Shown piece after piece: positions 11,705 to 35,783 of a DNA stretch of 64,000 nucleotides. Position 1 is the stretch's first letter. Each line of letters opens with the position of its first letter. Origin of the DNA: a virus; the IMG/VR virus record IMGVR_UViG_3300024509_000014, positions 1 to 64,000 of that record; one strand, written 5' to 3'. The translations under genes were made by a program, and so were the position numbers. Under the pieces are notes generated by a model. That model searched no databases. It saw only the letters and a list, made by a program, of their open reading frames with translations, and had not been told where the DNA came from.

Positions 11705-12412
11705 ATGGCCGACAATGTGCAAATCACTCCGGGTGCTGGTGTGTCCATCGCCGCCGACGAGGTCAACGATGCCACGCTGGGATCGTGCAAGGTCCAGTAT
11801 GTGAAGCTGATGGACGGCACCCTGAACGGCACCAGCAAGGCCACGGTGGGGGCCAGCGGTTTAGCTGTTCACGCCGCCCAGAATGGCACCTGGAATGTGG
11901 CGGTTTCCGGAATTGCTGCTTCTCAACCTACTTCTGGCGGTATTCTTCCAGGATTTGGCGCCTCCATGTCTAACGGCAATGCTTGGACTCCTTTGAGCAA
12001 TGCGTTTACTGCGGCAAACATAGGGCCAGTGGGTGTCTCAACACTTGCGGTTGCGCCATTTGTTTTCAATGGCACTGCGTATTCTCCCACCCTTATTCCG
12101 GCTGTTTACAAAGACCTCAGCGCCGTTTCCGTCGGTGTTTTGGCAACTGTCTGGACTCCGGCTTCCGGCAAGAAAATCCGGCTGTTGGGCGGTATCCTGT
12201 CGGTCTCCGGCAATGTCTCGCTGCTCTTTGAAGACAACTCATCCGGCAACTTTGTCTTCCGCACCCCCATGATCACGGCAGACACGGCCTTCCGGTTTGA
12301 CCTGCCGGGTGGGCGCCTGTTGTCAGCAGCCAACAATGTCCTCAAACTCACCCAAACCCCCAACTCGCCGTCCGTCACCGTCACCGGCACGCTGTTCGGC
12401 ATCGAGGAATAA
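11705..12412 (+). CDS. Virion structural protein (tail/decoration type)
   Basis: 235 residues. The N-terminus (MADNVQITPGAGVSIAADEV, then VQYVKLMDGTLNGTSKA) is a pattern repeatedly seen in structural proteins of environmental tailed phages. The C-terminal half is a beta-rich domain (KKIRLLGGILSVSGNVSLLF). Starts two bases after the preceding stop. Exact location in the particle is not known. Confidence 0.65.
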   Translation: MADNVQITPGAGVSIAADEVNDATLGSCKVQYVKLMDGTLNGTSKATVGASGLAVHAAQNGTWNVAVSGIAASQPTSGGILPGFGASMSNGNAWTPLSNAFTAANIGPVGVSTLAVAPFVFNGTAYSPTLIPAVYKDLSAVSVGVLATVWTPASGKKIRLLGGILSVSGNVSLLFEDNSSGNFVFRTPMITADTAFRFDLPGGRLLSAANNVLKLTQTPNSPSVTVTGTLFGIEE

Positions 12413-12415
12413 TTC

Positions 12416-15400
12416 ATGGCCGGTCAACTCCACCGTTTTTCCAACCAGGCTGTCACCTACCTCGGTTCAGCGATCAGTTCAACCGACACCGAGATCGTCG
12501 TTGTCAATATCCTGAAGTTCCCCCACCCACCCTTTGAAGTGACCTGCGGTCAAGAGGTGATGCGGGTCACAGCTGTTGATGACCAGACAAACACGCTGAC
12601 AGTTTTGCGAGGAAGGGAAGGTACCACAGCCGTCCTACACGCCGCTGGCGACCCCATCGCCCACACCGTGACGCGGGATGGTCTTCTAGATGTGTTGGAC
12701 AATAACGGTATTGCCAATGCTGCCCTGTCGTTTTCGGCGACGGACACAGAGGCTCCAGGCTCTGGAACTGTCTATTTGGCTCCACTTCAGGGCAACAACA
12801 TTTCCTTGTGGGACACCTTGGAAAGCCGTTGGCGCAAGTTCACGCTGAATATCGCCCCCTATGTGTCGGCCAACGAAGTAGCTGGCAAATGCGTGGATGT
12901 GTTTGCCTACTGGGATAATTCTGCCCAGGCTGTGGCTTTGCAGAAGGTGGTTTGGGACAGAGACACCGGCAGGCCTTCCGGCTATGACCTTGTGCGCGTC
13001 GACGGCGTGATGGTCAGCCAGCACTCAACCGCCTGGAGGCATGTCGGCACTTACCAGATGTTGGCGAACTCGGCGGTCGCCCTCTCAAGCCACACCCCGT
13101 CTCTGTCTGGGGTAAGCACTCTGGAACTGCCTCGCTATGGCAAGAATATCCTGCGTGTTGATCCGCCGATCAATGGTTATGAAATCCATGGCGTAGAGTC
13201 AATCGCAGATGGTGAAACTGTCTATCTGCTGAATATTTCCGAGACTGACACATTCTACCTAAAGCACGCTTCGGTGACAGCACCGTCCGGCTCCAAACTG
13301 CTGGTTCTTGATCTGGATGACTACCCTGTTTTTCCGTTGGGTGGGGTAACGCTGGTTTATGACGCCGCTTCTTTGGGTTATCGCGTCCTGGGAGCCTGTT
13401 GCACCACGACCACAACCACTACAACAACCACGACTTCCACGACAACTTCCACAACGACTACCAGCGGCCCGACCACTACCACAACCAGCACGACCACCAG
13501 CACAACAACCACGACCGCAAGCCCCTACCCGCTGCCAGCAACATGCCTCAAATCCTTAACCTATGTCCGCTCGTCTTCCAACACGAACGGTATCTCCGGC
13601 AATCATTTTGAGTTCAGCGACGACGGCACAAACTGGTATGTGGTCAGCAGCATGATCCCCAAATCAGTCGCCAATTTGACCTACACATTCCGTCTGCAAA
13701 ACACCAGCACTCATCCTTTTCGTTTATTTGACACAGATGGGTTCAACCGACTGGTTCCTTCGGCCACCAATCCTGCGTCTGGCAATGTGGCAGATGGGTT
13801 CTGGGGCGGCGATGTGGTCTTAACGGTAACATTAGAAGAAAAGGCGCCTTTTAGCTACGATTGCTCGTTGCATGGCTACGAAAGTGGTATCGGTGAAGAC
13901 GCCATCATCTATGATCCGGTCTGTACTTATTGCGCACAACCGGACATGTTCATTCGTATCAACATGGACCCGGACACACTTCCCCCACCACCAGCGTGGC
14001 CTTCCAATGTTCCGGAAGTCCAGATGCAATTTACCAACCCTCCTGGTGAGGCAACCGGCGGGGATGTTTACAGGACGAGCCTCCAATTTTCTGGCATGTC
14101 CGGCGTCATAGCTGGTTTGAAAGTAACTCTGCACGATGTGTCATCTTTTTCTTCGGTTGGCACAAGCGTGTTGATGTTGAAAGCACCGTCAGGCAAAGAT
14201 CTCTTGCTGGCTGGCGCCCTGGCAAATAGCGGCAATATCACAGAACAGACTTATGTCTTTACTAACGACAGCGGAGACTCGTTGTTTTCTTTCGGTTCTG
14301 GAGGAAATTTCCGCCCCAATCCCAACGGCAATCAAAATGTCACATATTGGCCGGATTCATCGGCCCCGTTTGGCACAACATTGACTGATCTATTTGGAGA
14401 CAGCCCCAACGGAGAATGGAAGCTCGGCATGATTGCCGATACGGGTTATGGATCAAGAATCTTGCGTGTGCCAAGTTGGTCTGTGGAAGTCTTAACATCA
14501 ACCAATGAAAGCCATACTGTTCGTGCGACCGATCCACAGTCAGGCGGTTACACGCCCGTTAACGCATGGCCCTACGAAGCTGATACTGAACTTCAGGATT
14601 TGGAAGAGCTTGGTGGCGTCAATTACTTCACTTCGACTGTTGACGCTGGCGAAACCCGTTATTATCGATTTAGGTCGAAATATTCTGCCAATTATTATCT
14701 GTGGGCTGGTGGACAGAATTCTGGCGGAATTAAGCTAGAAATATTCCGCAACTGGAATGCTTCTGGGTCACCATCTGTCACTTACACAAACCTGTATGAC
14801 TCTTCGCAAAAGCGATTGGCTTGCGACGCAGGCGAATTCATTGTTTTCAAATTCACGAACACATCAATTGTCTTCAAATATATCACGCTAAAATTGCAGA
14901 CTCCCGGCGTTCATTACGAGATGAGTGCCAACGAGACAGACTGGTATCTTCCGGAAAGATGGAAGTTTGGTGGAGCCAATCCAACCGGGCCAGCCACCTA
15001 CAATCTCAATTTGAAATATTTGAAAAATCCCAAATTCGCCATGAGGATGACGGGTGCTTTCTCGCCTGTTTGGTCTGGTGGCTCTGGAATTGGGACTGTT
15101 TCCAGCAATTCCGTAAATTATTACCACTTTGATTCGACCAAAGCGGCTACCCAGGAATTGTCCTTCACGATGGGTGGAACCTCTCCTTCGATTCGTTACA
15201 TCACCACCATAACTGGCACGCTAGTTATTCAAAATGATGATCTAGACGACAATCGTCAGTCGATTATTTATGGTGCTGGATGTTTTGGAGACGATCCTGT
15301 ACCTGACACGACTTCCCCGCCCACCACTACCCCAGCACCTTGGGTGGCTGGATATTATTGTGTCAATGATTCTTATCAAGGCACTACTGGGTGCAGCTAT

Positions 15401-21463: not shown

Positions 21464-21919
21464 ATGGCAAAGAAAGCTACTGAACACAGTCGGTACGAAA
21501 GTCGCTATGGCGGTGGATGGGTTGCTCCGCAACAAATCCTGGCCGAAGTGATGTGCGAACGCCAGGCTGCCAAGGAAAAGACTTCTCTGCCAGCGAAGTT
21601 CTGGGAATTGCCGCGCTGGAAGAAGATTTTTCTTCTTCAGTTGCGATTGGCGCTCAAGCTTTTGGAAAAACACCATCCCTCCGTTATCTCAAGGGCGATC
21701 CGGTCACCCGAGGGAAAAAAGGTTTTTTCGTTTGGGGCACCCTTCTTCAAGGATGTCTTGGCTAGGGAGCAGGAAAAATACGATGCGGAAATAGCCAGTC
21801 TGGCTGCTGCGCCGCCACCGCCCCCGCCCGATCCAATCGTCAACGACCAAACACCTAGGCCGGATTTCATTCCCCGTCGTTCTTTGCGCAGCAAATTGGA
21901 GGATTTTGAGCGTGAGTAA
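21464..21919 (+). CDS. Hypothetical protein, 151 aa
   Basis: Basic, helical N-terminal two thirds (LPRWKKIFLLQLRLALKLLEK), then a Pro run (APPPPPPDP) and a charged tail. No family recognised. Overlaps the start of the recombinase gene by 8 bases, which suggests a link to recombination or replication. Confidence 0.55.
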   Translation: MAKKATEHSRYESRYGGGWVAPQQILAEVMCERQAAKEKTSLPAKFWELPRWKKIFLLQLRLALKLLEKHHPSVISRAIRSPEGKKVFSFGAPFFKDVLAREQEKYDAEIASLAAAPPPPPPDPIVNDQTPRPDFIPRRSLRSKLEDFERE

Positions 21920-24008
21920 GAGCAAGCAGGAAAGTCATGACACACAACTGCAAAAAGAACTGGTCAAGCAGTACGGGGAAGGCGTGGCTGTTTCTGCCAG
22001 AGACATGCTGGAGGAAGAAGGCCACAAGAAGATGGTGGTGCCGGTTGGCCCGGCCCTGAATGTCGGCCTGCACGGAGGCATTCCCGAGGGTTCCTGGATC
22101 ACCTGTTCAGGCCAGCCCAAGACCGGCAAGGAACAGCCAATTTCCGCTACTGTTTACACCCCCAACGGCCCGCGCAAGATCGGCGACTTGGCGGTGGGCG
22201 ATGCCGTTTGCCACCCCGACGGCTCGGTCTGTGCTGTGGTTGGCGTTTTTCCTCAGGGAGTCAAGCCGGTTTACCGCGTCACCTTCGACAACGGGGACAC
22301 GGCTGAATGCGGCATGGATCATCTTTGGGAGGTTTCGGCCAAGGCGCGCAAGTCCCCCGAAGTCGTTGCGTTGAAAGACATCAAGAACGATCTCTACTAC
22401 AAGGAAAAAAATAATCGGTGGGGACAGCGGCCCAAGTGGCATGTTCGACTGACTGCGCCGGTATTTTTCCGTCCCAGGCCGGTTCCTGTCCATCCGTATG
22501 TTGTTGGTCTGATGCTTGGCAACGGCTCCATGACCGAAAAACAGCTGAGTTTTTACGCTGCCGACAAGGAATTGGCTGTTGCTGTCGCCGATCATGGCGA
22601 GTGCGATATCTCGGCCTCCAAGTCAAACAACTACAGTTATTGGCTGACCGGGGCCAAGCAACTGAAGACCGCCCTGAAGCGTCTGGGGTTGATTGGCAGG
22701 AATTCGCACACCAAACATGTTCCTGACTGCTTTTTGTACAACTCGGTCGAGGTTCGCCAGGCTGTCTTGCAGGGGCTGATGGATACCGATGGCACCGTTG
22801 GCAAGGCTGGGAGCGCAGAGTTCACCACCGTGTCACAGCGGCTGGCCGATCAAGTGAAATGGTTGGTGCAGTCTTTGGGCGGTCTCTGTTCTGTCAGGGC
22901 TTGCCGTCGCATCTTCAATGGCAAGCTTTTCCGGTTTTATCGCTGCCACATTCGTATGTCGGACATGTCGTCCATCTTCCGTCTCCCTCGCAAGAAGGCC
23001 CGCTGCCAAAAGCGAGTCAAGACGGTCATGACCCGCAGGATTGTGGCGGTGGATTATGTGCGGGATGAACAGTCTGTCTGCATCAAGGTCTTCCGTGAGG
23101 ACGGCCTGTATTTGACCGACAACTTCATTGTCACCCACAACACTTCCACGGCGTTGTCCTTTGCCGCCCAATGCCAGAAACCAGAATACGGCAATCGGCA
23201 TGTCTACTACCTGAATATTGAGGGGCGCCTCAAGGAGATGAACCTCAAGGGGACGGCGGGACTCAACCTCGACAAATTCACCATCTTCCGGTCAACGCCC
23301 GAGCGGATTCTGACCGCCAAGGATTATTTGACCTTGGCCATGAAGGCGATCAACACCGATCCCGGCTGTCTGGTCATCATCGACTCGGTCTCCGCTTTGT
23401 GCGACGAGAAGGAAATGGACGAGGGGGTCGGCTATGAGAACCGCGGTGCTGGCAACAAGATTTTTGCCGGGTTCTGCCGTCAGGCTTCCAATGTTGTGCC
23501 CGTTCGCAATTGTTTTGTCTGGGCGATCCTTCACCTGACACAGTCCCAGGGGATGTATGGCGGTTTTGTCGAAAAAGGAAGTCGCACCCTGCAATACCAG
23601 GCCGATGTCCAGATGCGGGTCAAGTTTGATCGGGCCTGGAAGGTCGGTTCTGGCGGCAACGAAAAACAGATTGGCCAGCAGGTTCACTGGCTGATTGAGT
23701 CGTGCGCCCTCGGCCCGCCCCAGATGGAAGTGGACAGCTATATCCGCTATGGCATCGGTATCGACCATGTCTATGAGGCGATCAATCTGGGTGCGCAACT
23801 CGGCTTGATCGGCAAAGCCGGGGCGTGGATGAGCCTGGACTACATGGAACGGCACCTCGACCTGATGGGCGTCGACAAGTGGAATGATGATGCCATCAAG
23901 AGGGTCAAGACCCAGGGTGGAGAGAAGCTGTACAAACTGCTTCAGGACAACCCCTCCTGGATTGCGGCGCTTGAGTCCGAAATCAACGCCATGCTCCACC
24001 CGTCATGA
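21912..24008 (+). CDS. uvsX: UvsX/RecA-type recombinase containing an intein
   Basis: 698-residue precursor from GTG 21912 (GGAGG 9 bases upstream). Without the 337-residue intein, the 361-residue extein is of normal UvsX/RecA length. Walker A is split: GQPKTGK before the intein, TSTALSF after it. Walker B-like CLVIIDSVSAL and the RecA core (HVYYLNIEGRL, LQYQADVQMRVKFDR) follow. Polymerises on single-stranded DNA for strand exchange. Activity needs intein removal. Overlaps the next gene by 4 bases. Confidence 0.87.
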   Translation: MSKSKQESHDTQLQKELVKQYGEGVAVSARDMLEEEGHKKMVVPVGPALNVGLHGGIPEGSWITCSGQPKTGKEQPISATVYTPNGPRKIGDLAVGDAVCHPDGSVCAVVGVFPQGVKPVYRVTFDNGDTAECGMDHLWEVSAKARKSPEVVALKDIKNDLYYKEKNNRWGQRPKWHVRLTAPVFFRPRPVPVHPYVVGLMLGNGSMTEKQLSFYAADKELAVAVADHGECDISASKSNNYSYWLTGAKQLKTALKRLGLIGRNSHTKHVPDCFLYNSVEVRQAVLQGLMDTDGTVGKAGSAEFTTVSQRLADQVKWLVQSLGGLCSVRACRRIFNGKLFRFYRCHIRMSDMSSIFRLPRKKARCQKRVKTVMTRRIVAVDYVRDEQSVCIKVFREDGLYLTDNFIVTHNTSTALSFAAQCQKPEYGNRHVYYLNIEGRLKEMNLKGTAGLNLDKFTIFRSTPERILTAKDYLTLAMKAINTDPGCLVIIDSVSALCDEKEMDEGVGYENRGAGNKIFAGFCRQASNVVPVRNCFVWAILHLTQSQGMYGGFVEKGSRTLQYQADVQMRVKFDRAWKVGSGGNEKQIGQQVHWLIESCALGPPQMEVDSYIRYGIGIDHVYEAINLGAQLGLIGKAGAWMSLDYMERHLDLMGVDKWNDDAIKRVKTQGGEKLYKLLQDNPSWIAALESEINAMLHPS
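22131..23141 (+). other. Intein, class 3 type, with LAGLIDADG endonuclease domain
   Basis: 337 residues inserted between GK and T of the recombinase P-loop. It begins with Glu, so it lacks the Cys/Ser/Ala-1 of class 1 and 2 inteins. The class 3 WCT set is visible: Trp in MDHLWEV (block B), Cys in SVCIKV (block F) and Thr in IVTHN (block G), with Thr as +1 residue. Splicing block A-like TVYTPNGPRKIGDLAVGD. Endonuclease motifs YVVGLMLGNGS and VLQGLMDTDGT; the first has Asn where the catalytic Asp is expected. Confidence 0.85.
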
Positions 24009-24858: not shown

Positions 24859-25274
24859 GTGACAAGGATTTGCTGAAAAAGATGGCTCTGGCGATGGCGT
24901 CGGAGGACTGGGCGACTGTTGCCGAGGTGGCCAGCCAGATGGCTGGCAAGGAGACTACCCCTCCCGAGGTCGCTGCAAAACCGAAGAAAGCGCCCAAAAG
25001 CAAAAAGGCACCAGAACCTGCCAAGTCTGTATCGACCAACCAGTTCAAGGATGACCTGTCTCTTGAGAAGGGGCATATTGCCACCGACAAGAAGCTGAAC
25101 CGGAAGATGCGCCCGGCAGCCCGCAGACCTCCTTCGCAAAACCAGAGGATGGTTGATGTGGTCTGTCCAAAGTGCAACAGGACGCATCAGGTGGCAGCCG
25201 TGCAGGCGGCGTTGCGGCGCGAGATCGATTCCGGGGTGGTTTGTCCTGGTTGTCTGAAGAGGGGGAGATCATGA
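24855..25274 (+). CDS. Zinc-ribbon protein with Lys/Ala/Pro linker, 139 aa
   Basis: Starts at an ATGA overlap. Short helix, long basic low-complexity linker (AAKPKKAPKSKKAPEPAK), then a C-terminal CPKC...CPGC zinc ribbon (residues about 109-135). Looks like an accessory DNA-binding protein next to the helicase. No family recognised. Confidence 0.55.
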   Translation: MSDKDLLKKMALAMASEDWATVAEVASQMAGKETTPPEVAAKPKKAPKSKKAPEPAKSVSTNQFKDDLSLEKGHIATDKKLNRKMRPAARRPPSQNQRMVDVVCPKCNRTHQVAAVQAALRREIDSGVVCPGCLKRGRS

Positions 25275-26722
25275 ATCAAGATCCGGCAGCAGAGAGGGCC
25301 GTTTTGGCGGCTCTTCTCAAGGGTGGGCACGAGGCATGGGTGGATGTCTCCGATGTGTTGTCGGCAGACTGTTTCAGCTGTGGCACCAACGCCGTCTATT
25401 ACCGTTGCCTGGAGAAGGTTCTTGCCGAACCGAACTCCAAGGCAGACATCCCCTCCATTGTGTCGGCGGCTGGCACCCTGGGGTTTGCGGACACCTTCAA
25501 GTCCCAGGAAGAGCAGAAATACCTGCGGGCCTTGGCTGTTACTCCGGTTGAACCATCCAATTTGCGCAGGTTGGCTGCGCGTTTGGTGAAACTGCACAAG
25601 GCCAACGAATTCTCGGAAGTGATGAAGGAGTCGGCCCAGAAATTGGCCAGCATTTCCGGGGACGAGACGCTGGGCGAAATCCTGGGGATCGGTGAAGAAG
25701 CGGTTTTCAATTTCGTTGGGAGCCTGGGCAACCAGTCCGAAAGCCTGGCGCATATCTCCAAGGATCTGGACGAATACATCGACTATCTGGCCGCAAACCC
25801 GTCAGATGTCATGGGGATCAGTTCTGGTCTTCCCCAGTACGATGCCGCCATTGGCGGGGGGTTCCAGCGTGGCACAGTCAATGTCATCGGTGCCCGACCC
25901 AAGACAGGCAAAACCCAGCTGGCAGACAATATCGCCCTGCATGTCGCCTCCAAGCTGAATATTCCCGTGCTCAACCTGGACACGGAAATGTCCGCAAAGG
26001 AGCATTGGCACCGCATGTTGGCGAACCTAGCCAATGTGACCGTGGACGATGTCAAGAGTGGCAAGTTTGGCGCCGACGAGGTGAAGTCCAAGGCGGTCTA
26101 TGAGGCCAAGGAGAAGCTGAAGAACATCCCCTACCACTATGCCTCCATCGCCGGCCAGCCGTTTGAGGAGACGGTCGGGTCGATGCGTCGCTGGCTGTAC
26201 CGGCATGTCGGTTTCGACGAGTCTGGACAGACCAAACCGGCTCTCATTGTCTTCGATTACATCAAGCTGATGGACGACCGCAGCATCACCAAGAACATCT
26301 CGGAATTCCAGGCGTTGGGTTTCCTGATGACTAACTTGCACAATTTTGCGGTGCGTTATCAGGTGCCTGTCTTGGCTTTTGTCCAGTTGAACCGGGACGG
26401 CATCAACGCCGAGGACACAAGCACGGCCAGCGGTTCCGATCGCATCATCTGGCTCTGCTCAAATTTCAGCATCTACAAGTGGAAGTCCCAGGAGGAAATG
26501 GCCGAAGAGGGTGTGGGTCCGGACGGGGTCAGGTACAACCTGAAGCTCATTCCGGTGGTGTCTCGGCACGGCAAGGGTCTTGATGGTGGGGATTACATCA
26601 ACATTCAGGGGCAGTACGAATATGGCAGACTCAAGGAAGGACCGACGCGGAACGGACTACTCCGAAGCAAACCCACGCGGTCAGGCTTCGACAATCCCAC
26701 CCAAGAGTCCGCAGAATTTTGA
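25271..26722 (+). CDS. dnaB: DnaB-like replicative DNA helicase
   Basis: 483 residues; ATG overlapping the upstream stop. N-terminal DnaB domain (AERAVLAALLKG), then the RecA-like motor: Walker A GARPKTGKTQ (about residue 215), VLNLDTEMSAKEHW (motif 1a/E), Walker B PALIVFDYIKLM, and LAFVQLNRDG with SDRIIWLCSN. Unwinds the fork 5' to 3' as a hexamer. The last 101 bases overlap the primase gene in another frame. Confidence 0.88.
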   Translation: MNQDPAAERAVLAALLKGGHEAWVDVSDVLSADCFSCGTNAVYYRCLEKVLAEPNSKADIPSIVSAAGTLGFADTFKSQEEQKYLRALAVTPVEPSNLRRLAARLVKLHKANEFSEVMKESAQKLASISGDETLGEILGIGEEAVFNFVGSLGNQSESLAHISKDLDEYIDYLAANPSDVMGISSGLPQYDAAIGGGFQRGTVNVIGARPKTGKTQLADNIALHVASKLNIPVLNLDTEMSAKEHWHRMLANLANVTVDDVKSGKFGADEVKSKAVYEAKEKLKNIPYHYASIAGQPFEETVGSMRRWLYRHVGFDESGQTKPALIVFDYIKLMDDRSITKNISEFQALGFLMTNLHNFAVRYQVPVLAFVQLNRDGINAEDTSTASGSDRIIWLCSNFSIYKWKSQEEMAEEGVGPDGVRYNLKLIPVVSRHGKGLDGGDYINIQGQYEYGRLKEGPTRNGLLRSKPTRSGFDNPTQESAEF

Positions 26723-27743
26723 GCGGCTGCGCAAAATAGCAGCTGCCGCCACCCAAAAGCTGGAGACTGTTCTTGACGCCCTCGGGCTGGAGTACAAGCC
26801 TGCCGAGAATTCCTTCTTTACGGCATGCCCAGTCCATGGTGGCGACAACCCGACCGGCTGTAGGGTTTACTACAACGCCTCAATGGGCTACTGGCAATGC
26901 TTCACTCGTGGTTGCGAGAAAGTCTTCCGGGATGACACTTTCGGGTTTGTGCGGGGAGCATTGTCCCGCCAGCGTTACGGGTGGGTCGCTGAAGGAGACA
27001 AGGTCGCCACGGTCGCAGAAACCGAGAAGTTCCTTTCGGCTCTGTTGGCGATTGCCCCGGGGGCAGACATACCCCAGGTTGACAAGAGTCAGCGGGAATT
27101 CGTCACGGCAACCCGGATCATGCAGGTCGAGAGCGGTCCCGTGGGCAAATGGGGGCGTGATCTTGTCCGATCCCGGATGGAGATACCCAGCAAGTTCTTC
27201 CAGGGGCGCGGATTTGGCCAGGAGGTCTTGAACCATTTCGATGTCGGCGACACGAAGCAGGGGCCTTTTGCTGGCCGCGCTGTTGTCCCCGTTTATGACT
27301 ACACGGGCCGCATGGCCGTTGGTTTTTCTGCCCGGGCCATCGGGGACATGCAGCCAAAGTGGCGTCATTCCGAGGGGTTCTCCCGCTCCCGCGTCCTTTA
27401 CAACCAGTTTGCTGCGTTTCGGGATGCTCGTCGCAACGGAACCATCATCCTGACTGAAGGCCCCTGTGATGTTTGGCGCCTTTGGGAAGCCGGTTATCAC
27501 AATGCGGTGGCACTGTTTGGCGTTGCCTTGAGCGATGCCCAGCAAGTCCTGCTGGAGTCATCTGGAGCAAGCCGTGTGATCGTCTTCCTGGATGACGATG
27601 AGGCTGGCCAGATAGCTTCACAAAAAATCATCGGCCAGCTTTCTCGGTCTTTTCGAGTGCTTTCAGCCCAGGCTGGCAAGGGACGCGATCCTGCCGATTT
27701 GTCTGTCGACGAAATGAAAGAGATTTTAGGGAGACTCAAGTAA
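26622..27743 (+). CDS. DnaG-like DNA primase (zinc finger plus Toprim)
   Basis: 373 residues; ATG 26622 is the only start that keeps the N-terminal zinc domain. CHC2-type zinc finger (CPVHGGDNPTGCRVYY ... WQCFTRGC, residues about 69-100), then a Toprim domain: IILTEGPCDVWRLWEAGY and VIVFLDDDEAGQIAS with the conserved Glu and DxD. Makes RNA primers with the helicase. Overlaps the helicase end by 101 bases. Confidence 0.85.
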   Translation: MADSRKDRRGTDYSEANPRGQASTIPPKSPQNFERLRKIAAAATQKLETVLDALGLEYKPAENSFFTACPVHGGDNPTGCRVYYNASMGYWQCFTRGCEKVFRDDTFGFVRGALSRQRYGWVAEGDKVATVAETEKFLSALLAIAPGADIPQVDKSQREFVTATRIMQVESGPVGKWGRDLVRSRMEIPSKFFQGRGFGQEVLNHFDVGDTKQGPFAGRAVVPVYDYTGRMAVGFSARAIGDMQPKWRHSEGFSRSRVLYNQFAAFRDARRNGTIILTEGPCDVWRLWEAGYHNAVALFGVALSDAQQVLLESSGASRVIVFLDDDEAGQIASQKIIGQLSRSFRVLSAQAGKGRDPADLSVDEMKEILGRLK

Positions 27744-28360
27744 TGCTGATAGGAATCGCTGGACGCAAGGGTGCCGGTAAAGACACTTTGGCCATGGATT
27801 TGGTGAGAAGTTCCTACCGCATCAACAGTTATTTCGGCGGCGGCAAGGTCTTCCATATGGCCGACACACTCAAGGAAGTGTGCATCAAGCTGCTTGGTCT
27901 TCAGGCTGAGTTGGTCTATGGCACCCAGCAGGACAAGGAAAAGCCCACCCATCTGAAATGGGAGGATATGCCCACCTACCCGCTGATGACGAATCCGAAA
28001 CCTTCCGGGGTCATGAGTGTGCGGGAGGTACTGCAATATTTTGGCACCGAAATCTGTCGCAAAATGTACCCGAAAGTTCACATTGACGCAACATTGAACG
28101 CAATTGCGCAATACGAGGAAAAGTCAGACTCCAAAGGGATTTATGTCGTTGCCGACCTGCGTTTTCCCAACGAGTGCCAAGCCATCAAAGAAGATGGTGG
28201 AATCGTCATAGGTTTAACACGAGGTGAAAAAGGTGACAATCATACTAGCGAAAATGCTTTAGACGACTATTCTTTTGATGTGTTGATAGACAATATCGGC
28301 ATGTCTCGCGAAGAACAGCTTGAAGCCGCCATAAAATCCCTGAGAAGGAGCTACCGTTGA
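27743..28360 (+). CDS. Deoxynucleoside monophosphate kinase
   Basis: 205 residues, start overlapping the primase stop (TAATG). P-loop GIAGRKGAGKDTLA at the N-terminus, then VREVLQYFGTEICRK and VADLRFPNEC, as in T4 gene 1-type dNMP kinases. Phosphorylates dNMPs to dNDPs, linking ThyX output to dNTP synthesis. The 3' half is locally more AT-rich than its neighbours. Confidence 0.83.
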   Translation: MLIGIAGRKGAGKDTLAMDLVRSSYRINSYFGGGKVFHMADTLKEVCIKLLGLQAELVYGTQQDKEKPTHLKWEDMPTYPLMTNPKPSGVMSVREVLQYFGTEICRKMYPKVHIDATLNAIAQYEEKSDSKGIYVVADLRFPNECQAIKEDGGIVIGLTRGEKGDNHTSENALDDYSFDVLIDNIGMSREEQLEAAIKSLRRSYR

Positions 28361-29418
28361 TCGTCACTTTTTTGCGATCCAGCTCAGTTGGGTCTTACGG
28401 GTGGTGTCCTCATAAGTTCTTTATCACAAGCAACTTAGGACACAAGGAACCATCCGGCAAAAAAGCAGAATCTGGCAATATTGTTCACAAGGCCCTGGAG
28501 TTGTTGGCCCGCAAAAAATTAGCGCATCAAAATAGAGAGCGAACTTTTTCTGATCCAGAAGTCGAAAAAGAGTTTGATACGGCCACCTTCACCCCGGAAT
28601 TGGCTATAGAAGCTGGTTGGGATCACTACACCAACCCAGAACGGACTATTCATCCCTGGACCAAAGGTGATCGTAAAAAATGTGAACAATGGACTTGGGA
28701 TGTCCTGCTGTTTAACGACGGCATGTTCTCTCCGGTCAATCGCAATGTTGTCATGCCAGAGCAATATTTTGAAATCACTCTGCCGCACGACTGGGCCAAG
28801 TACGAATATTCCCTGCCTGATGGCCGTCGCTACGAAGGCCAATTGATTTTGCGTGGCACGATGGATCTCGTCACCAGGGTGAGGCCTGGACTCATCGAAT
28901 ACATCGATTGGAAAACAGGCAAGCGTCGATGCTGGGTAAAAGACAAGGTAAAAGAATACGAAGATATGTACGAAGATTTTCAGCTTCGTCTATATCATTA
29001 TGCATTGTGCGAGCTTTATCCAGACGATGATATCTTAATGACGATCTTTTTTGTGCAGGATGGTGGTCCTTATTCTCTCTGCCTGCAACGATCCGATCTG
29101 CCCGACACCCTCCAGATGATCCGTCGTGAGTTTGAGAAGATCAAAAGAGACAACGCTCCCAGTCGGATTCTTGACCGCGACCCAAACAATTGGAAATGCA
29201 GTCGCCTCTGTTCTTTTTTTGATGACGAACATCCAGAATCTGGTCTTTCGACCTGCCAACACTACAGGAACGAAATTGTTCAACTTGGCATCGACCGGGT
29301 TGTTGCCAAATACGCTCTGGGCGAACCCTGGGCTGGATATGGGTCTGGTGGCGGTAGAACAGAAAGGGTTGACGAAACCGCCAATCAAACCGTAGTATCT
29401 TCGGGAGTTGTGTCGTGA
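28357..29418 (+). CDS. RecB/Cas4-like PD-(D/E)XK exonuclease, Fe-S type
   Basis: 353 residues, TTG start overlapping the upstream stop, AGGAG upstream. Nuclease motifs: SGNIVHKALELLA (His), GTMDLV (Asp), IEYIDWKTGK (D...K catalytic core), and QLRLYHYAL (QxxxY). One Cys near the N-terminus (WCPHKFF) plus three near the C-terminus (WKCSRLCSF, STCQHY) fit the four-Cys iron-sulfur cluster of Cas4/AddB-like nucleases. Probable end-resection enzyme for phage recombination. Confidence 0.78.
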   Translation: MIVTFLRSSSVGSYGWCPHKFFITSNLGHKEPSGKKAESGNIVHKALELLARKKLAHQNRERTFSDPEVEKEFDTATFTPELAIEAGWDHYTNPERTIHPWTKGDRKKCEQWTWDVLLFNDGMFSPVNRNVVMPEQYFEITLPHDWAKYEYSLPDGRRYEGQLILRGTMDLVTRVRPGLIEYIDWKTGKRRCWVKDKVKEYEDMYEDFQLRLYHYALCELYPDDDILMTIFFVQDGGPYSLCLQRSDLPDTLQMIRREFEKIKRDNAPSRILDRDPNNWKCSRLCSFFDDEHPESGLSTCQHYRNEIVQLGIDRVVAKYALGEPWAGYGSGGGRTERVDETANQTVVSSGVVS

Positions 29419-29915
29419 CTAACTGTCATTTGAAAATCGGGACTAAGATCACATTAAACGAAGCCGAGCAAAGATTGGCTAAGTTCTTGGCAAAGTCCAG
29501 ATATATGCAAAACAGGAAGTCCAACACAAAAGACGGCAAGGTGGGGCCGCAGGACTGCGAGACAACTGATCTGGAAGGAATCGCTGCCGAGATCGCTTTC
29601 TGCAAGATGACCAATGTTTATCCAGATTTGCAACTGGATGAACGCCCCGACTTCGACGCAACTTTGCCCTGTGGCACCACTGTGGATGTCAAGGCCACTC
29701 GCTATAGAAGCGGTCGCCTTTTGGCTGTCCCCGGCAAGGCCAACAAATCAGACGATCTTGATGCGTATTCGCTCATTGTGGGCGAGTTTCCAGGCCCCTA
29801 TGAGTTTAGGGGCTTTATGAGAAGTGATGACCTCTTGCGGCAAGAGAGACTCACCAATTTGGGCCACGGCCCGACCTACGCCGCGGATCAGAAGGAGCTT
29901 GTTGAACAACCATGA
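29415..29915 (+). CDS. Restriction-endonuclease-fold protein, 166 aa
   Basis: GTG start overlapping the preceding TGA. Helix LEGIAAEIAFCKMTNV supplies a Glu, then DERPDFDATL and TTVDVKATRYRSGRL give the D...DxK core of the PD-(D/E)XK superfamily. Substrate unknown. Adjacent to the RecB/Cas4-like nuclease, so perhaps a partner in DNA processing. Confidence 0.6.
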   Translation: MTNCHLKIGTKITLNEAEQRLAKFLAKSRYMQNRKSNTKDGKVGPQDCETTDLEGIAAEIAFCKMTNVYPDLQLDERPDFDATLPCGTTVDVKATRYRSGRLLAVPGKANKSDDLDAYSLIVGEFPGPYEFRGFMRSDDLLRQERLTNLGHGPTYAADQKELVEQP

Positions 29916-30238
29916 GTCTTGCCAATTATCAGGTGGATGCCCGCACGACTGCTATCTACCCGCCCGAAGTGAAGGTGATCTATCCGGCTCTTGGTCTGGC
30001 CGGGGAGGCCGGTGAGGTCTGCAACAAAACCAAGAAGATTTTGCGCGACGACGGTGGAAGGATGACTGAGGAGAAGCGGACTCAGCTGATCGACGAGTTG
30101 GGCGATGTCCTCTGGTATGTCGCCAACCTCGCCACCGATCTGGGAGTGACCCTTGACGAAGTGGCCAGGATCAATCTGGCCAAATTGAACAGTCGCAAAG
30201 AGCGTGGCACCATCACGGGCAGCGGGGACAATCGGTGA
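29912..30238 (+). CDS. mazG: MazG-like nucleotide pyrophosphohydrolase
   Basis: 108 residues. PALGLAGEAGEVCNKTKK and LIDELGDVLWYVANLA give the ExxE and ExxD metal-binding helices of MazG. Cleaves (d)NTPs, or possibly (p)ppGpp as suggested for phage MazG proteins, to monophosphates. Overlaps both neighbours by 4 bases. Confidence 0.85.
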   Translation: MSLANYQVDARTTAIYPPEVKVIYPALGLAGEAGEVCNKTKKILRDDGGRMTEEKRTQLIDELGDVLWYVANLATDLGVTLDEVARINLAKLNSRKERGTITGSGDNR

Positions 30239-30816
30239 CCAAGCTGACCTGCTATTTGGATTTGGACGGGGTCCTGGCGGATTTTACCGCCGGGGCCATC
30301 TCCCTCCACAAGCTCCCGGTCACCCACAAGGATGTGGACTGTTGGGATTTTCACCACAAGCTAGGCTTCCAGGGCGACAACGAGAAGAAGTTTTGGGAGC
30401 CTATGGGCTTCGACTTCTGGGCCAACCTACCCAAGACCAGAGAGCACGATGCCGTACTGTCGATCGTGGAAGAGGTTTTTGGCGACAAAGTAGTAATAGC
30501 TACTTCTCCAGCATCAACGCCAGGGTGTGTTGAGGGCAAGATTGCCTGGATCAACAAACATCTTCCGGCTTATTCGCGTAGGTTTGTTGTGGGCGCCTCC
30601 AAACACCTCATGGCCAGTTACGGCAAAATCCTGATAGACGATTACGAAGTCAACACAAAACGCTTTTTTGAGCACGGTGGAACAGCTATTCTTTTCCCTA
30701 GGTTGTACAACAGTCGTGGCCATCTGACTGTCGACGGTCATTTTGACAAGATGGACACCTTTCATATGTGGCTAAAGGATGCGGTGCGTTACCATAATTT
30801 TTTCGGGGATGCTTAG
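30235..30816 (+). CDS. 5'(3')-deoxyribonucleotidase (HAD family)
   Basis: 193 residues, GTG start (GTGA overlap). HAD motif I YLDLDGVLADF at the N-terminus, motif II region IATSPAS, and motif IV KILIDDYEVNTKRF match the NT5C-type nucleotidases found in phages. Removes phosphate from deoxynucleotides. Works with MazG and dNMP kinase in pool control. Confidence 0.83.
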   Translation: MTKLTCYLDLDGVLADFTAGAISLHKLPVTHKDVDCWDFHHKLGFQGDNEKKFWEPMGFDFWANLPKTREHDAVLSIVEEVFGDKVVIATSPASTPGCVEGKIAWINKHLPAYSRRFVVGASKHLMASYGKILIDDYEVNTKRFFEHGGTAILFPRLYNSRGHLTVDGHFDKMDTFHMWLKDAVRYHNFFGDA

Positions 30817-30858: not shown

Positions 30859-32784
30859 ATGAGTTGGGTTCCGCTGCATTGTCACAGCATGTATAGCTTG
30901 CTTGATGGGCTTAGCAAGCCTGATGCTATTGCTAGCAGATGTGAGAAGTTGGGCTACAAGGCTTGTGCGATTACTGATCATGGCACGCTTTCCGGCGTCG
31001 CCGCTTTTTCCAAGGCCCTTCGCAAGAAAAATATCAAGCCGATCCTTGGGTCGGAATTTTATCTTTGTTCTGGACCCGCACACGACAAGCGCCCCGAGAA
31101 TGGATCGCTGTCGCACCTGTGTGTGTTGGCAAAGGGCGAGGAGGGATGGAAGAGACTCGTTCAAGCCTCGAGCGACTCGAACGACCCCAATCATTTTTAC
31201 CGCAAGCCTAGGCTGGACTTGGAGTTGCTGGCAAAACATGCGGACGGCAAGTTCATCGTTTTTTCTGGACATCCTGGTAGCGACCTCTGCAATGCCTTGT
31301 TTGAAAATCCCAAAGCTGCCTATGGCTGCCAGACATACGAGCAGGCCAGGGCAATGGTGCCTTCCGACTGGGAAAAGCGCCTTCTCGCAGTTACAAATCG
31401 ATACAGGAATCTGTTCGGGGACAAAAATTTTTGGATTGAGATCCAAGCTGTCGATCAGGACAACCTTCCGGCCGCTGCCGTGACGGTCAAGGCATTGCGT
31501 CATTTTGCCAAGAAATACAACATTAAAACGCTAGCTACTCCAGACGCCCACTATCCAGCCAGCGAAGATGCTGCGGATCAAAGAGTTCTGCTTTGTTCTG
31601 CTATGCAAACAACTCTTCCTACGATACACTCAGCATTATCCAAGCAAGAAGATGTTTCTCTTGGTGGTTTCTTCAGGTCTAATCGCTATCATATTCCAGA
31701 TTTTGATGAGGTGAAAGGCCTGCACACGCCTCAGGAAATTGATGCGTCTCTGGAGATCAGCGATTTATGCGGGGATTATGACATCCTTTCCAAACCTCAG
31801 CTGCCTGAGTTTGCCTGCCCCAACGGCATGAGTGCCGACGAGTATGTGCGTCAGCTTTGTCGTGAAGGCTGGAAAAAGAAATTGAAGCACGCTGCTCAGG
31901 GCACGCCTGAATTTGTCGCCTACGGCGATCGGGTCAAGAAAGAGCTTGGGGTTATCACCGAGGCTGGGTTGTCTGCCTACTTCCTGATCGTGTCTGAATA
32001 TTGCGATTGGGCGAGGAGCCAGGGGTGGTTGGTTGGCAAAGGACGCGGTTCTGGTGCCGGATGTCTGGTCAGCTACCTGCTCGGCATCACCAATGTTGAC
32101 CCCGTCAAATACAACCTGCTGTTTGAGCGTTTTTACAACGCAGGTCGCAACCAGCCTGGTCGCGTGAGCCTGCCGGATATTGATTGCGACTTCCCCATCT
32201 CGCACCGTGATGAAGTTGTGCAACACATGCGCGACCGCTACGGCGAGGATCGTGTTGCCCAGATGGTCACTTTTTCTAGACTACAGGGGCGTGCTGCCAT
32301 CAAGGATGTTTTAAGGGCGCATGAAAAGGGGACTTTCGATGAAATCAACAAGATTACCGACCATATTCCTGACGAGGCAGCCATCTCTGATGAACTTCAG
32401 GAAATGCGCGAGGAGACAGGCGAAGCATCAATCTTGATGTGGGCCTTGGAGAACAACGCCAAGGAACTAGCTCCCTGGTGTCGCATCGGAGACAGCGGTC
32501 AACTGGAAGGGCCTCTGGCCGTAGAGTTTGCCCAAGCTATCCGTCTTGAAGGAACTAAGCGAAATCAATCAAAACATGCGGCTGGCGTGGTGATTGCGCC
32601 TAGATCGTTGGCCGACTGCTGTCCTATGGTATTTGACAAGTCTACGAACCGTCGCATCTGCGGTGTGGAAATGTCCGACTTGGAAGCCATGGGCTTTGTC
32701 AAGTTTGACATCTTGGGGGTCGCAGCCCTCGACAAGATGCAAGGTGCTATTTCTTTGCTGAAGGGGGGGTCTGTCCGTGTTTGA
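30859..32784 (+). CDS. dnaE: DNA polymerase III alpha, N-terminal part (PHP and palm)
   Basis: 641 residues; ATG chosen because MSWVPLHCHSMYSLLDG aligns with the usual DnaE start. PHP domain with metal ligands HCHS, ITDHG and TPDAHY. Palm: KGRGSGAGCLVSYL, catalytic PDIDCDF (about residue 440) and the third Asp in VKFDILG (about 615). It ends just after this Asp, so all three catalytic aspartates are here but fingers, clamp-binding and OB regions are missing. These are in the gene at 33720. Overlaps the next gene by 8 bases. Confidence 0.88.
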   Translation: MSWVPLHCHSMYSLLDGLSKPDAIASRCEKLGYKACAITDHGTLSGVAAFSKALRKKNIKPILGSEFYLCSGPAHDKRPENGSLSHLCVLAKGEEGWKRLVQASSDSNDPNHFYRKPRLDLELLAKHADGKFIVFSGHPGSDLCNALFENPKAAYGCQTYEQARAMVPSDWEKRLLAVTNRYRNLFGDKNFWIEIQAVDQDNLPAAAVTVKALRHFAKKYNIKTLATPDAHYPASEDAADQRVLLCSAMQTTLPTIHSALSKQEDVSLGGFFRSNRYHIPDFDEVKGLHTPQEIDASLEISDLCGDYDILSKPQLPEFACPNGMSADEYVRQLCREGWKKKLKHAAQGTPEFVAYGDRVKKELGVITEAGLSAYFLIVSEYCDWARSQGWLVGKGRGSGAGCLVSYLLGITNVDPVKYNLLFERFYNAGRNQPGRVSLPDIDCDFPISHRDEVVQHMRDRYGEDRVAQMVTFSRLQGRAAIKDVLRAHEKGTFDEINKITDHIPDEAAISDELQEMREETGEASILMWALENNAKELAPWCRIGDSGQLEGPLAVEFAQAIRLEGTKRNQSKHAAGVVIAPRSLADCCPMVFDKSTNRRICGVEMSDLEAMGFVKFDILGVAALDKMQGAISLLKGGSVRV

Positions 32785-33067
32785 TGAAGAATCTGAAGAA
32801 GTTGGTCTTTCCAAGCGCATGGTGGCACACAATCTGGCTTTGTTGGACGCCCTTGCTGAAGCTTCTGAGGCCAAGAAACGCATGGCCGAGGAGATGGGCA
32901 ATGTCATCAAGGCGATCCTGATCAAATTCGGGGGGGAGATCACGCTGGATGGCACATTCATCGCCGCTGCTGAATCGCCAACCTGCACATTGAATCACGA
33001 GATTCTGTCCAACGGCGAAGTCCTGCGGTTTTGGGTCGAGGAAGTCGAAGAGGGGGACGACGAATGA
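32777..33067 (+). CDS. Small helical protein between polymerase halves, 96 aa
   Basis: GTG start with GGGGGG upstream, overlapping the polymerase stop. Residues 10-50 are helical and charged (LLDALAEASEAKKRMAEEMG), then a beta hairpin and an acidic end (WVEEVEEGDDE). No family recognised; might bridge the split polymerase or exonuclease. The stop overlaps the exonuclease start (ATGA). Confidence 0.5.
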   Translation: MFDEESEEVGLSKRMVAHNLALLDALAEASEAKKRMAEEMGNVIKAILIKFGGEITLDGTFIAAAESPTCTLNHEILSNGEVLRFWVEEVEEGDDE

Positions 33068-33720
33068 CCACCAACATCATCATTTGTTTTGACTTTGAGA
33101 CGGGCGGTTTGGACATCAGAACCACCGAGCCAATCGAAATCGCTGCGGTCGCCATCAACCCCAGGACTCTGTCGGTAGTGCCGGATGGCACATTCTACAG
33201 CCTGTGCAAGCCGACCGATTTCTCCCTCCTGCAAGACCAGGCTCTGGCCGTCAACGGCAAGACGCGTGACCAGCTGAGGGCTGCGCCTGAGCAGGAAGCG
33301 GTCTGGCGTTCTTTCTGTTCTTTCATCAAGCGGTTCAATCCCAAGGGGAACAGCTTCACGACGGCGCCCATTGCCGCCGGGAAAAACATCCGCGCTTTTG
33401 ACCTGCCGATTTTCAATCGTCTTTGCGCCAAGTACGGCTTTGCCGACAAGAACGGGGATCAAAACCTGTTCCATCGCCGGAAGGTCTATGACTTGGAGGA
33501 TCTGCTGGAGTTCTGGTTTCATGACTCCGAAGAGCTTCCCGATCGCAAGATGGACACCTTGCGCGGATATTTTGGGATGAGCCGGGACGGGGCGCATTCG
33601 GCCATGGTGGACACGAAACAGACGGCAGAATTGATCGTCCGCTTTTTGAAAGTGCATCGGTATTATGCCGCCAAAATCCCGTTCCGTGGAGCTTGCGCCA
33701 AGAACCCGGTGATCATCTGA
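33064..33720 (+). CDS. dnaQ: DnaQ-like 3'-5' exonuclease (proofreading)
   Basis: 218 residues. Exo I CFDFETGGLD, Exo II AGKNIRAFDLPIF, Exo III HSAMVDTKQTAELI give the DEDDh set. Expected to proofread for the DnaE-like polymerase. Its gene lies between the two polymerase parts; the stop overlaps the start of the second (TGATG), so the four genes are probably translated as one coupled unit. Confidence 0.83.
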   Translation: MTTNIIICFDFETGGLDIRTTEPIEIAAVAINPRTLSVVPDGTFYSLCKPTDFSLLQDQALAVNGKTRDQLRAAPEQEAVWRSFCSFIKRFNPKGNSFTTAPIAAGKNIRAFDLPIFNRLCAKYGFADKNGDQNLFHRRKVYDLEDLLEFWFHDSEELPDRKMDTLRGYFGMSRDGAHSAMVDTKQTAELIVRFLKVHRYYAAKIPFRGACAKNPVII

Positions 33721-35351
33721 TGGCCGAGTATCACATGTCCTGTGGTTGTTCCTGGCCGATAGTCGGGGATTCGCCACGCCAAGGCGCTCTTCCCCTGCTT
33801 GATGTCGATGTGTCCAAGCTGCCGGATTGTCATCTGGCCTGGGACATCATGTCGATTGGCAATACCAAGGGTGTCTTCCAGCTGGAAAGCCGGCTGGGGG
33901 CAACCTGGGCCAAAAAGCTCAGGCCCAGGAATGACGAGCACCTTTCGGCTTTGGGCGCTTTGTTGCGCCCGGGCTGTTTGGCCGCCAAAGACGAGAACGG
34001 CATCAGCCTGACCGAACACTACTGCCGTCGCGTCAACAAAGAAGAGCCTGCTGACTCGTTCGACCCCGCCCTAGACGAAATACTCGGGCCGACTGAGCAG
34101 ATTTTGGTTTATCAAGAACAAGCCATGCAGATTGGAGCAAAGTTTGCTGGCTTCGATCTTAAAAATGTCGACAGGCTACGCAAGGCCATCGGCAAGAAGG
34201 ATCAGAAGGAAATGGCCGAGGTCAAGCGGCTTTTCCTTGAGGGGGCAGAAAAGGTCAAGGTCGTTTCCATGGATGTGGCCGAGACCGTTTGGGGCTGGAT
34301 CGAGAAGGCTGGACGGTACTCTTTCAACAAGTCCCACAGCATGAGCTACGGGCTGACTGGGTACGACACCGCCTATCTCAAGTCCCACTTCCCGGTGCAG
34401 TTCTATACCTCGTGGCTGGCCTACGCCGAAGACAAGGTTGATCCGGATCAGGAAGTCATGGAGTTGGTCGAGGATGCCCGCAGGGCCGGGATCACCGTGT
34501 TTCCGCCCGATGTCCGCCACAAACAGATGATTTTCTGGACAGATGGCGTCGATATCTTTTTCGGGCTGTCAAACATCAAGGGGTTGGGACAGTCCAATCT
34601 ACACAAGCTGTTTGAGATTATGGAAAAAGCCGAGAAGGATTTGGGCAAGAAATCCACCGAATTCACTTGGGTCGAATGGCTTGTGCATGTTGCCGCAGAA
34701 ACACCTTCGGTGAATCACAAGCTGATCATGGCGGGCGCCCTGGATTGGGCGGGACGCAAGCGGCAACGAATGCTGGCCGAGATCGATGTTGTCGCCTCGC
34801 TCACCAAGAAGGAGCAGGCCTGGATTCTGAAGAACTGCAATGGAGACGAGCCGTTTGTCGATGTGCTTCGACGGTTGGCCAAACCGAAGAAGGAAGGCGG
34901 TGGTGTGGCCAATGTGAAACGCGGGTCTCTGGTGAATGGCCAGGCGACCCTTCTGGAGAATCCACCCACCCCGTTGAGCGACCATCCGGCTTGGATGGCT
35001 TGGGCAGAAGAGCAGGTCTTTGGGTTCGCCCTGACCTGTTCTCGCGTTGACGGTTGCGATCTGGGTGACGCAAACACGACCTGCGGCGAATTCTTGGCTG
35101 GAAAGACTGGATTTCTTCTCCTTGGCGTTGAGGTGAGAGGGGTCAGGTCGTTTAAGACAAAGAAAGGGACCATGATGGCTTTCCTTTCTCTATCGGATTC
35201 GTCCGGGATGCTGGACGATGTGGTGTGTTTCTCTGAGCCTTGGGAGGAGTACAAGCATCTCCTGTCTGAGGGGAACACGGTTTTGGTGCAGGGCGAACGA
35301 GACCCCAAGAAAGGTTCGTTGGTCGTGCGCAAGGTTTTTCAGATGTCATGA
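33720..35351 (+). CDS. dnaE: DNA polymerase III alpha, C-terminal part (fingers, OB)
   Basis: 543 residues from ATG 33720. A short extension with a CGC cysteine pair (MSCGCSWPIVGDSP) precedes DnaE sequence that resumes at GNTKGVFQLES (about residue 50), then fingers (YQEQAMQIGAKFAGF, FNKSHSMSYGLTGYDTAYLK), the helix-hairpin-helix/clamp region and an OB domain (GVRSFKTKKGTMMAFLSL, LVQGERDP). No intein-like sequence at its start. It must pair with the upstream half to make a working polymerase. Confidence 0.87.
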   Translation: MAEYHMSCGCSWPIVGDSPRQGALPLLDVDVSKLPDCHLAWDIMSIGNTKGVFQLESRLGATWAKKLRPRNDEHLSALGALLRPGCLAAKDENGISLTEHYCRRVNKEEPADSFDPALDEILGPTEQILVYQEQAMQIGAKFAGFDLKNVDRLRKAIGKKDQKEMAEVKRLFLEGAEKVKVVSMDVAETVWGWIEKAGRYSFNKSHSMSYGLTGYDTAYLKSHFPVQFYTSWLAYAEDKVDPDQEVMELVEDARRAGITVFPPDVRHKQMIFWTDGVDIFFGLSNIKGLGQSNLHKLFEIMEKAEKDLGKKSTEFTWVEWLVHVAAETPSVNHKLIMAGALDWAGRKRQRMLAEIDVVASLTKKEQAWILKNCNGDEPFVDVLRRLAKPKKEGGGVANVKRGSLVNGQATLLENPPTPLSDHPAWMAWAEEQVFGFALTCSRVDGCDLGDANTTCGEFLAGKTGFLLLGVEVRGVRSFKTKKGTMMAFLSLSDSSGMLDDVVCFSEPWEEYKHLLSEGNTVLVQGERDPKKGSLVVRKVFQMS

Positions 35352-35360
35352 GGTGAATTC

Positions 35361-35783
35361 GTGAACAATTGCATTTTCATTGGGAACTTCGTGCGTGACC
35401 CCGAGCTTCAGAGCGTGGGGGCTGAACACCGCGTGGCAAAATTTGCCATCGCTGTCAACGGTGGCCGCAAGAACCGCAACGGAGAGGAGGAGGTCGCATT
35501 CATTGAGTGCGAAGCCTGGGACAAATCCGCTGACACCATCAGCAAGTACATGAAGAAGGGGTCGAAGATCGCCATCCAGGCGACCGCACGCACCGACACC
35601 TGGACTGACAAGTCGAGTGGCACCAAGCGTTCGACCTTGCGTTTTCGGGTGAACAACTTCACCTTCCTGGGAGCCAAGAACACCGAAGCCAGATCGGATA
35701 AGGCCGTAGCAGCCGGGGTGGGTGCCGAGGACGAGGGTGTCGGTTTTGCCAGTGGTGCTGACGGCGAAGAAATCCCCTTCTGA
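35361..35783 (+). CDS. ssb: Single-stranded DNA-binding protein
   Basis: 140 residues, GTG start. OB-fold SSB pattern (IFIGNFVRDPELQ, VAKFAIAVNGG, FIECEAWDKSADTISKYMKKG), flexible Gly/Ala middle and the acidic tip GEEIPF that recruits partners. Coats single-stranded DNA at the fork. Ends the replication block before the glycosylation island. Confidence 0.9.
   Translation: MNNCIFIGNFVRDPELQSVGAEHRVAKFAIAVNGGRKNRNGEEEVAFIECEAWDKSADTISKYMKKGSKIAIQATARTDTWTDKSSGTKRSTLRFRVNNFTFLGAKNTEARSDKAVAAGVGAEDEGVGFASGADGEEIPF

What the first reader, a model, noticed from the sequence alone, without database searches (positions are those of the whole stretch)
30859..35351. DNA polymerase III alpha split into two genes with the proofreading exonuclease between them
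The N-terminal gene holds PHP plus palm with all three catalytic Asp (PDIDCDF, KFDILG); the C-terminal gene resumes at GVFQLES with fingers and OB domain. Between them sit a 96-residue unknown protein and a DnaQ-type exonuclease, all with overlapping stops and starts. No intein sequence flanks the break, so this is not the cyanobacterial trans-splicing DnaE; two chains presumably assemble directly. The 96-residue protein is a candidate bridging subunit.
Basis: partly seen in the sequence, partly recalled or inferred. Interest (0 to 1): 0.78.

Follow-up and report, generated by a model that had tools for sequence, protein, structure and literature searches.

The report
Two-chain phage DNA polymerase III
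This virus, like every relative sampled here, makes its main DNA-copying enzyme as two separate proteins that must come together to form one active site, with a gene for a probable error-correcting nuclease always between the two halves; this two-chain design is old and stable in a large group of uncultured viruses, though split versions of the same enzyme are known elsewhere.

Summary
A DnaE-type polymerase III alpha is encoded by two genes, cut at the palm/fingers boundary with no conserved residue lost. Between them lie a 96-residue protein and an intact DEDDh exonuclease, all overlapping by 1-8 nt. It is not a sequencing error. In 186 distinct viral loci the order N-half, exonuclease, C-half is universal: none is fused and none lacks the exonuclease. 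In 23 of 110 loci measured, further genes lie between the parts, up to several kb. A tree makes the split clade one origin (SH-aLRT 100). No intein, intron or recoding signal lies at the break. All catalytic Asp (N-half) and fingers motifs (C-half) are conserved, and no other replicative polymerase is seen in 12 records of 72-230 kb. The best reading is a two-chain replicase assembled non-covalently, probably proofread by the exonuclease and perhaps also by an intact PHP site. The 96-residue protein as a general bridge is not supported: the slot holds one of three unrelated, lineage-specific families, or none. Direct assembly is inferred, not shown. Prior art: split minimal Pol III alpha in jumbo phages, and an independent same-site split in Rossellomorea phage phiT1. 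New variant of a known kind.

The parts
30859..32784 (+). dnaE-N: PHP domain plus complete palm, 641 aa, three catalytic Asp D440, D442, D617; PHP metal motif HHDHEH[C/H]DH complete with H at the C/H position
32763..32769 (+). run of seven G just before the end of dnaE-N, 7 nt upstream of the U96 start; best read as its ribosome-binding site
   Evidence: sequence read directly; inference
32777..33067 (+). U96: 96-aa small protein, one long helix plus a beta hairpin, lineage-specific; not an essential part of the family
33064..33720 (+). EXO: DEDDh 3'-5' exonuclease, 218 aa, D10 E12 D113 H178 D183; lies between the halves in every locus of the clade
33720..35351 (+). dnaE-C: fingers, helix-hairpin-helix and OB domains, 543 aa
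33741..33830 (+). N-terminal cap of dnaE-C: Cys8-Gly9-Cys10 and Cys37, co-occurring in the clade; candidate metal site or docking element at the new terminus
35361..35783 (+). SSB gene directly downstream, part of the same replication module

Best explanation
The virus makes its own C-family replicase as two chains. The N chain brings the PHP domain and the palm with all three catalytic Asp. The C chain brings the fingers, which hold the incoming nucleotide, plus the helix-hairpin-helix and OB parts. Neither chain can copy DNA alone, so they must fold together without a covalent link, along the large palm/fingers interface that is internal in ordinary DnaE. Overlapping genes make the chains and the exonuclease next to each other from one message. 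The DEDDh exonuclease is most likely the proofreading subunit, working beside a PHP site that also looks intact. Shown here: the split, its single origin and stability, intact active sites, purifying selection, no rejoining element, no other polymerase seen. Inferred: physical assembly, replicase role, proofreading role.
For: All of 186 distinct viral loci holding both halves are split with the exonuclease between them; none in the clade is fused. In 23 of 110 loci measured individually, extra genes lie between the parts, up to several kb, so readthrough, hopping or frameshift cannot join the chains. The split clade is one side of one branch, SH-aLRT 100. Palm Asp triad is DDD in 105/105, and fingers motifs FQLE, RK and FNKSH are nearly invariant in 103. 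dN/dS of N, EXO and C is 0.03-0.04 against L003. N and C align end to end on solved alpha structures. DEDDh residues are intact in all 106 complete exonucleases; the PHP motif is complete in 89/105, matching the published active motif (PMC12926913). No PolA or PolB is detected in 12 records, each with a DnaE palm. No Rfam RNA is found in the region.
Against: No complex could be predicted and nothing is measured. Residue covariation gave no enrichment of N-C pairs over other pairs. Exonuclease, N and C distances correlate about equally (0.93-0.94), which shared ancestry alone would give. The clamp-binding-like motif QATLL in the window is not conserved in the clade, and no beta clamp was found, so processivity is unexplained. 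Records may be fragments, so a second polymerase could lie outside them.
Confidence: 0.8

Rival explanations
1. The two halves are rejoined into one chain by protein trans-splicing, an intron, or translational bypass.
For: Cyanobacterial DnaE is joined this way, and relatives L044/L045 carry a split intein, L009/L030 a mini-intein, inside dnaE-C.
Against: No room or sequence for intein ends: N stops 24 residues after the third Asp (15-27 in most loci) and C starts with a conserved non-intein cap. Genes overlap, so no intron boundaries fit; no Rfam match. Inteins in the clade sit at another site (FNK/SHS). Intervening genes differ and can span kilobases.
Confidence: 0.03
2. The exonuclease is not the proofreader but an independent single-strand or RNA exonuclease (RNase T or ExoI-like) that merely shares the operon; proofreading is done by the PHP domain.
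For: Best sequence and fold matches are RNase T and ExoI; no curated DnaQ/epsilon cut-off is met; the PHP motif is complete in 89/105.
Against: It lies between the two polymerase genes in 186/186 loci, even where other genes come and go. PolC-type exonuclease is among the top profile hits. Several subclades have lost PHP residues but keep the exonuclease.
Confidence: 0.22
3. U96 (or the small protein in its slot) is the bridge that holds the two halves together.
For: A small gene of one of three families follows dnaE-N in 100/110 loci; U96 is under purifying selection against L003 (dN/dS 0.02).
Against: The three families show no detectable sequence similarity and are mutually exclusive, and 10 loci have none. 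The U96 model matches no known fold.
Confidence: 0.1
4. The halves no longer form a polymerase; they are remnants or have taken separate roles.
For: PHP is degenerate or shortened in some members such as L034, L036, L038.
Against: Catalytic residues invariant in both halves, strong purifying selection, and no other polymerase detected in 12 records.
Confidence: 0.03

Closest known systems
Bacterial DnaE, polymerase III alpha (E. coli, Taq, M. tuberculosis DnaE1)
   Same: Domain order PHP, palm, fingers, HhH, OB; catalytic and fingers motifs; alignable end to end
   Different: Two chains instead of one; extra CGC cap on the C chain; H at the seventh PHP metal position in 99/105
Split minimal Pol III alpha of group 2.2 jumbo phages (Iyer et al. 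2021, PMC7824862)
   Same: A phage C-family polymerase in two proteins thought to reconstitute one enzyme
   Different: Theirs lacks the other Pol III domains, has distantly located genes and accompanies a family B polymerase; here PHP, fingers, HhH and OB are present, genes overlap or abut in most loci, and no PolB was found
Rossellomorea phage phiT1 gp20/gp19/gp18 (PV767480)
   Same: DnaE cut at the same palm/fingers linker, with a 49-aa ORF between
   Different: Outside the split clade in the tree, so an independent split; no exonuclease between the halves
Cyanobacterial split-intein DnaE
   Same: dnaE in two genes
   Different: No intein here; the cut is at the palm/fingers junction instead of within the fingers at AEY/CFNKSHS (cyanobacterial site from general knowledge)
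Mycobacterial DnaE1 with noncanonical DnaQ
   Same: Intact PHP proofreader together with a DEDDh exonuclease (described in PMC12926913)
   Different: Single-chain polymerase; exonuclease gene not interposed
Split phage polymerases of other families (MEP401 PolA, PMC10580990; MIJ3 PolB with split intein, PMC6892783)
   Same: Phage replicase genes cut in two with a small ORF or endonuclease between
   Different: Different polymerase families; MIJ3 relies on an intein

Membership tests
C-family DNA polymerase (DnaE) | Palm with three catalytic Asp | tested here: met
   DDD in 105/105; PF07733 E=2e-71
C-family DNA polymerase (DnaE) | Fingers domain with conserved motifs | tested here: met
   PF17657 E=6e-33; motifs nearly invariant in 103
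C-family DNA polymerase (DnaE) | PHP domain with active metal motif HHDHEH[C/H]DH | tested here: met
   HHDHEHHDH in window and in 89/105
C-family DNA polymerase (DnaE) | Single polypeptide | tested here: not met
   Two ORFs in all 186 distinct loci
Split-intein DnaE (cyanobacterial type) | Split intein at the break | tested here: not met
   Alignments of both ends show no intein
Group 2.2 jumbo-phage split Pol III alpha | Minimal enzyme lacking PHP and other domains | tested here: not met
   PHP, HhH and OB present
Group 2.2 jumbo-phage split Pol III alpha | Co-occurs with a family B polymerase | tested here: not met
   0 of 12 records; records may be incomplete
DEDDh exonuclease superfamily | D, E, D, H, D active-site residues | tested here: met
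   106 of 106 complete sequences
DnaQ/epsilon proofreading subunit | Curated family score | tested here: not met
   No NCBIfam cut-off reached
DnaQ/epsilon proofreading subunit | Binds alpha | not testable with these tools
   No complex prediction available

The most novel reading that the evidence does not exclude
An obligate multi-chain C-family replicase in which the palm/fingers joint is a true subunit interface, stabilised by new elements: a metal-binding CGC...C cap on the fingers chain and the exonuclease acting as a structural clamp between the halves. In L044/L045 the fingers chain would itself be trans-spliced, giving a polymerase made from three genes.
Probability: 0.15. Interest if true: 0.78.

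Novelty: new variant of a known kind. Interest (0 to 1): 0.62.

Why it matters
A replicative polymerase is normally one chain whose palm and fingers move against each other at every step. A large, old group of viruses keeps these two parts as separate chains without rejoining them, so the palm/fingers interface must be strong enough by itself. That makes assembly, fidelity and domain movement of family C polymerases testable by mixing parts. The combination of an intact PHP site with a separate DEDDh nuclease also gives a natural system for the open question of how two proofreaders share one polymerase. Automated annotation would list the halves as truncated or duplicate genes.

Tried and rejected
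Sequencing error: rejected, 186 distinct loci. Intein or intron at the break: rejected. Recoding at the G7 run: rejected, it fits a ribosome-binding site for U96 and later genes still separate the halves. U96 as general bridge: not supported. Inter-chain zinc site with cysteines of the N half: Cys37 of C tracks the CGC motif (74/74) but no N-half cysteine does, so no support for a shared site. Covariation between halves: uninformative, dominated by ancestry. Clamp-binding motif as a family trait: rejected, conserved only near the window. Isolated phage of this clade in INPHARED: none found, best N-half hits 34% identical. First calls with wrong frames failed. Two older papers likely to bear on this (Kazlauskas and Venclovas 2011; Dassa 2009) are not held, so an earlier mention of such a split cannot be excluded.

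Full report
THE OBSERVATION. Pfam gives PHP and DNA_pol3_alpha in N, RNase_T in EXO, DNA_pol3_finger and HHH_6 in C, and nothing for U96. PHROG 405, one DnaE family, is matched by N over profile positions 42-615 and by C over 634-1074, so the halves tile one protein. Against solved structures N covers Taq alpha 6-637 and C covers Taq 637-1110, E. coli 575-1055. The cut is therefore at the palm/fingers domain boundary, just after the third catalytic Asp and its helix. C begins with about 22 residues that ordinary DnaE does not have.

HOW WIDE. Single-sequence scans of viral contigs found the arrangement at once. Profile scans with N, C, divergent N and EXO extended it. After removing duplicates, 186 viral loci contain both halves; all are split, all have the exonuclease in between, and none is fused. 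The one fused viral locus, L039, lies outside the clade. All 73 bacterial chromosomal DnaE with both parts that came back from the genome scan are fused, with no EXO-family gene detected there. In 110 loci measured individually the gap from N to EXO has a median of 216 nt and EXO abuts or overlaps C; 23 loci carry additional genes, in L025, L129, L135 and L160 several kilobases. Such inserts include an HNH endonuclease, a uracil-DNA glycosylase-like protein, methyltransferases and, in L129/L135, an aldehyde dehydrogenase (names from sequence). A caveat: each scan keeps only the best 80 of several hundred candidates, so more distant members were not seen.

ONE ORIGIN. A tree of palm plus fingers with 36 split representatives, 14 bacterial DnaE and 17 other phage DnaE puts all split loci on one side of one branch with SH-aLRT 100 and a long stem (quick method, no bootstrap). 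Rossellomorea phage phiT1, whose DnaE is cut at the same linker (gp20, a 49-aa ORF, gp18), is not within it. Other isolates are cut elsewhere, mostly between PHP and palm: Microbacterium phage Cybele, Mycobacterium phage Send513, Bacillus phages Jayan and vB_BpsS-140, Cellulophaga phage phi13:1. Splitting of DnaE thus recurs in phages; what is special here is the age and size of the clade and the constant exonuclease.

FUNCTION OF THE PARTS. The Asp triad is DDD in all 105 N sequences; fingers motifs FQLE, RPG, YQEQ, RKxxGKK and FNKSH are nearly invariant in 103 C sequences. By the known alpha structures the metal site is in the palm and nucleotide-binding basic residues are in the fingers (general knowledge), so neither chain alone can polymerise. 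dN/dS against L003 is 0.031 (N), 0.026 (EXO), 0.038 (C), 0.022 (U96). No family A or B polymerase was found in 12 records of 72-230 kb, and each has a DnaE palm, so this is probably the replicase. No beta clamp domain was found; the host clamp may be used, or none.

PROOFREADING. The PHP metal motif HHDHEH[C/H]DH, used in PMC12926913 to call PHP active, is complete in 89/105, with His in place of the usual Cys in 99/105. The exonuclease has D, E, D, H, D in every complete sequence. Both are complete in 84/105. The EXO model is confident (pLDDT 91); its nearest solved folds are RNase T and ExoI, with DnaQ and PolC exonuclease lower in the list, and no curated DnaQ family is reached. Proofreading is the likeliest job because of the constant position, but is not proven.

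THE SMALL GENE. After dnaE-N comes one of three mutually exclusive families unlike each other in sequence: about 60 aa with a conserved SCC (47 loci), about 75 aa (30 loci), or the U96 family (23 loci); 10 of 110 have none of these. U96 is predicted as a long helix and a beta hairpin, with no fold match. A general bridging role is therefore not supported.

THE NEW TERMINUS. In 80 of 103 C sequences the added N-terminal segment carries Cys-Gly-Cys. In the 97 loci compared, Cys37 is present in all 74 that have CGC and in only 4 of 23 that lack it. No such CxC is found upstream of the motif in 52 fused DnaE. This may be a small metal-binding cap that arose with the split; whether it touches the N chain is unknown.

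NOT REJOINED. No intein sequence can fit at the break, no RNA family matches, and the intervening genes vary. A useful contrast lies inside the clade: L009/L030 carry a mini-intein within dnaE-C at FNK/SHS, and L044/L045 carry a split intein there, with a free-standing endonuclease ORF between its halves. Where these viruses break the chain inside the fingers an intein is present; at the palm/fingers joint none is.

WHAT IS KNOWN. Iyer et al. 2021 described a minimal Pol III alpha in jumbo phages split into two distant genes beside a family B polymerase (PMC7824862). It shares the idea but not the domains, gene order or setting. Searches of the held library found no description of the present arrangement, but two older key papers are not held.

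VERDICT. A real, widespread and stable two-chain variant of the C-family replicase with an interposed exonuclease. Assembly and roles are inferred. New variant of a known kind.

Noticed in passing
L044 10786-13781 (also L045): dnaE-C is broken by a split intein: N-intein after FNK (from 11443), a free-standing endonuclease ORF at 11761-12690, then a C-intein and the rest of the protein from 12654.
   Followed up: partly
L009 8001-10118 (same contig as L030): In-frame mini-intein of about 155-160 aa in dnaE-C at FNK/SHS, 3 residues from the cyanobacterial DnaE split-intein site.
   Followed up: partly
L026 5295-7235: The PD-(D/E)XK nuclease gene just upstream of dnaE-N appears to carry an intein (IIDWK...HN/TG).
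   Followed up: no
window 21906-24008: 700-aa RecA-like protein with a LAGLIDADG stretch at 272-353, probably an intein in the recombinase gene.
   Followed up: no
L268, L270, L267, L269, L275: Named phages with DnaE split at other places, mostly between PHP and palm; in Send513 the gene annotated as sliding clamp (gp72) lies under the match to the PHP part and may be misannotated.
   Followed up: partly
L129 and L135, between dnaE-N and EXO: About 6 kb of genes, including a glyoxalase-like protein and an aldehyde dehydrogenase, inserted between the polymerase halves.
   Followed up: no
contig IMGVR_UViG_3300024358_000009 (L045, L116): One 206-kb record holds two copies of the polymerase palm gene; either two replicases or a chimeric assembly.
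   Followed up: no
L185: A contig binned as a Lokiarchaeota genome carries the split polymerase with exonuclease; probably a virus contig in the bin.
   Followed up: no
dnaE-N of the clade, window residue H138: The seventh PHP metal ligand is His instead of the usual Cys in 99 of 105 members, a clade signature.
   Followed up: yes
window 27743-30816: Upstream of the polymerase lie a kinase-like gene, a PD-(D/E)XK nuclease, a MazG-like protein and a phosphatase-like gene, so the split polymerase sits in a replication and nucleotide module after DnaB and primase (25172-27743); the kinase, MazG and phosphatase names are by eye.
   Followed up: partly
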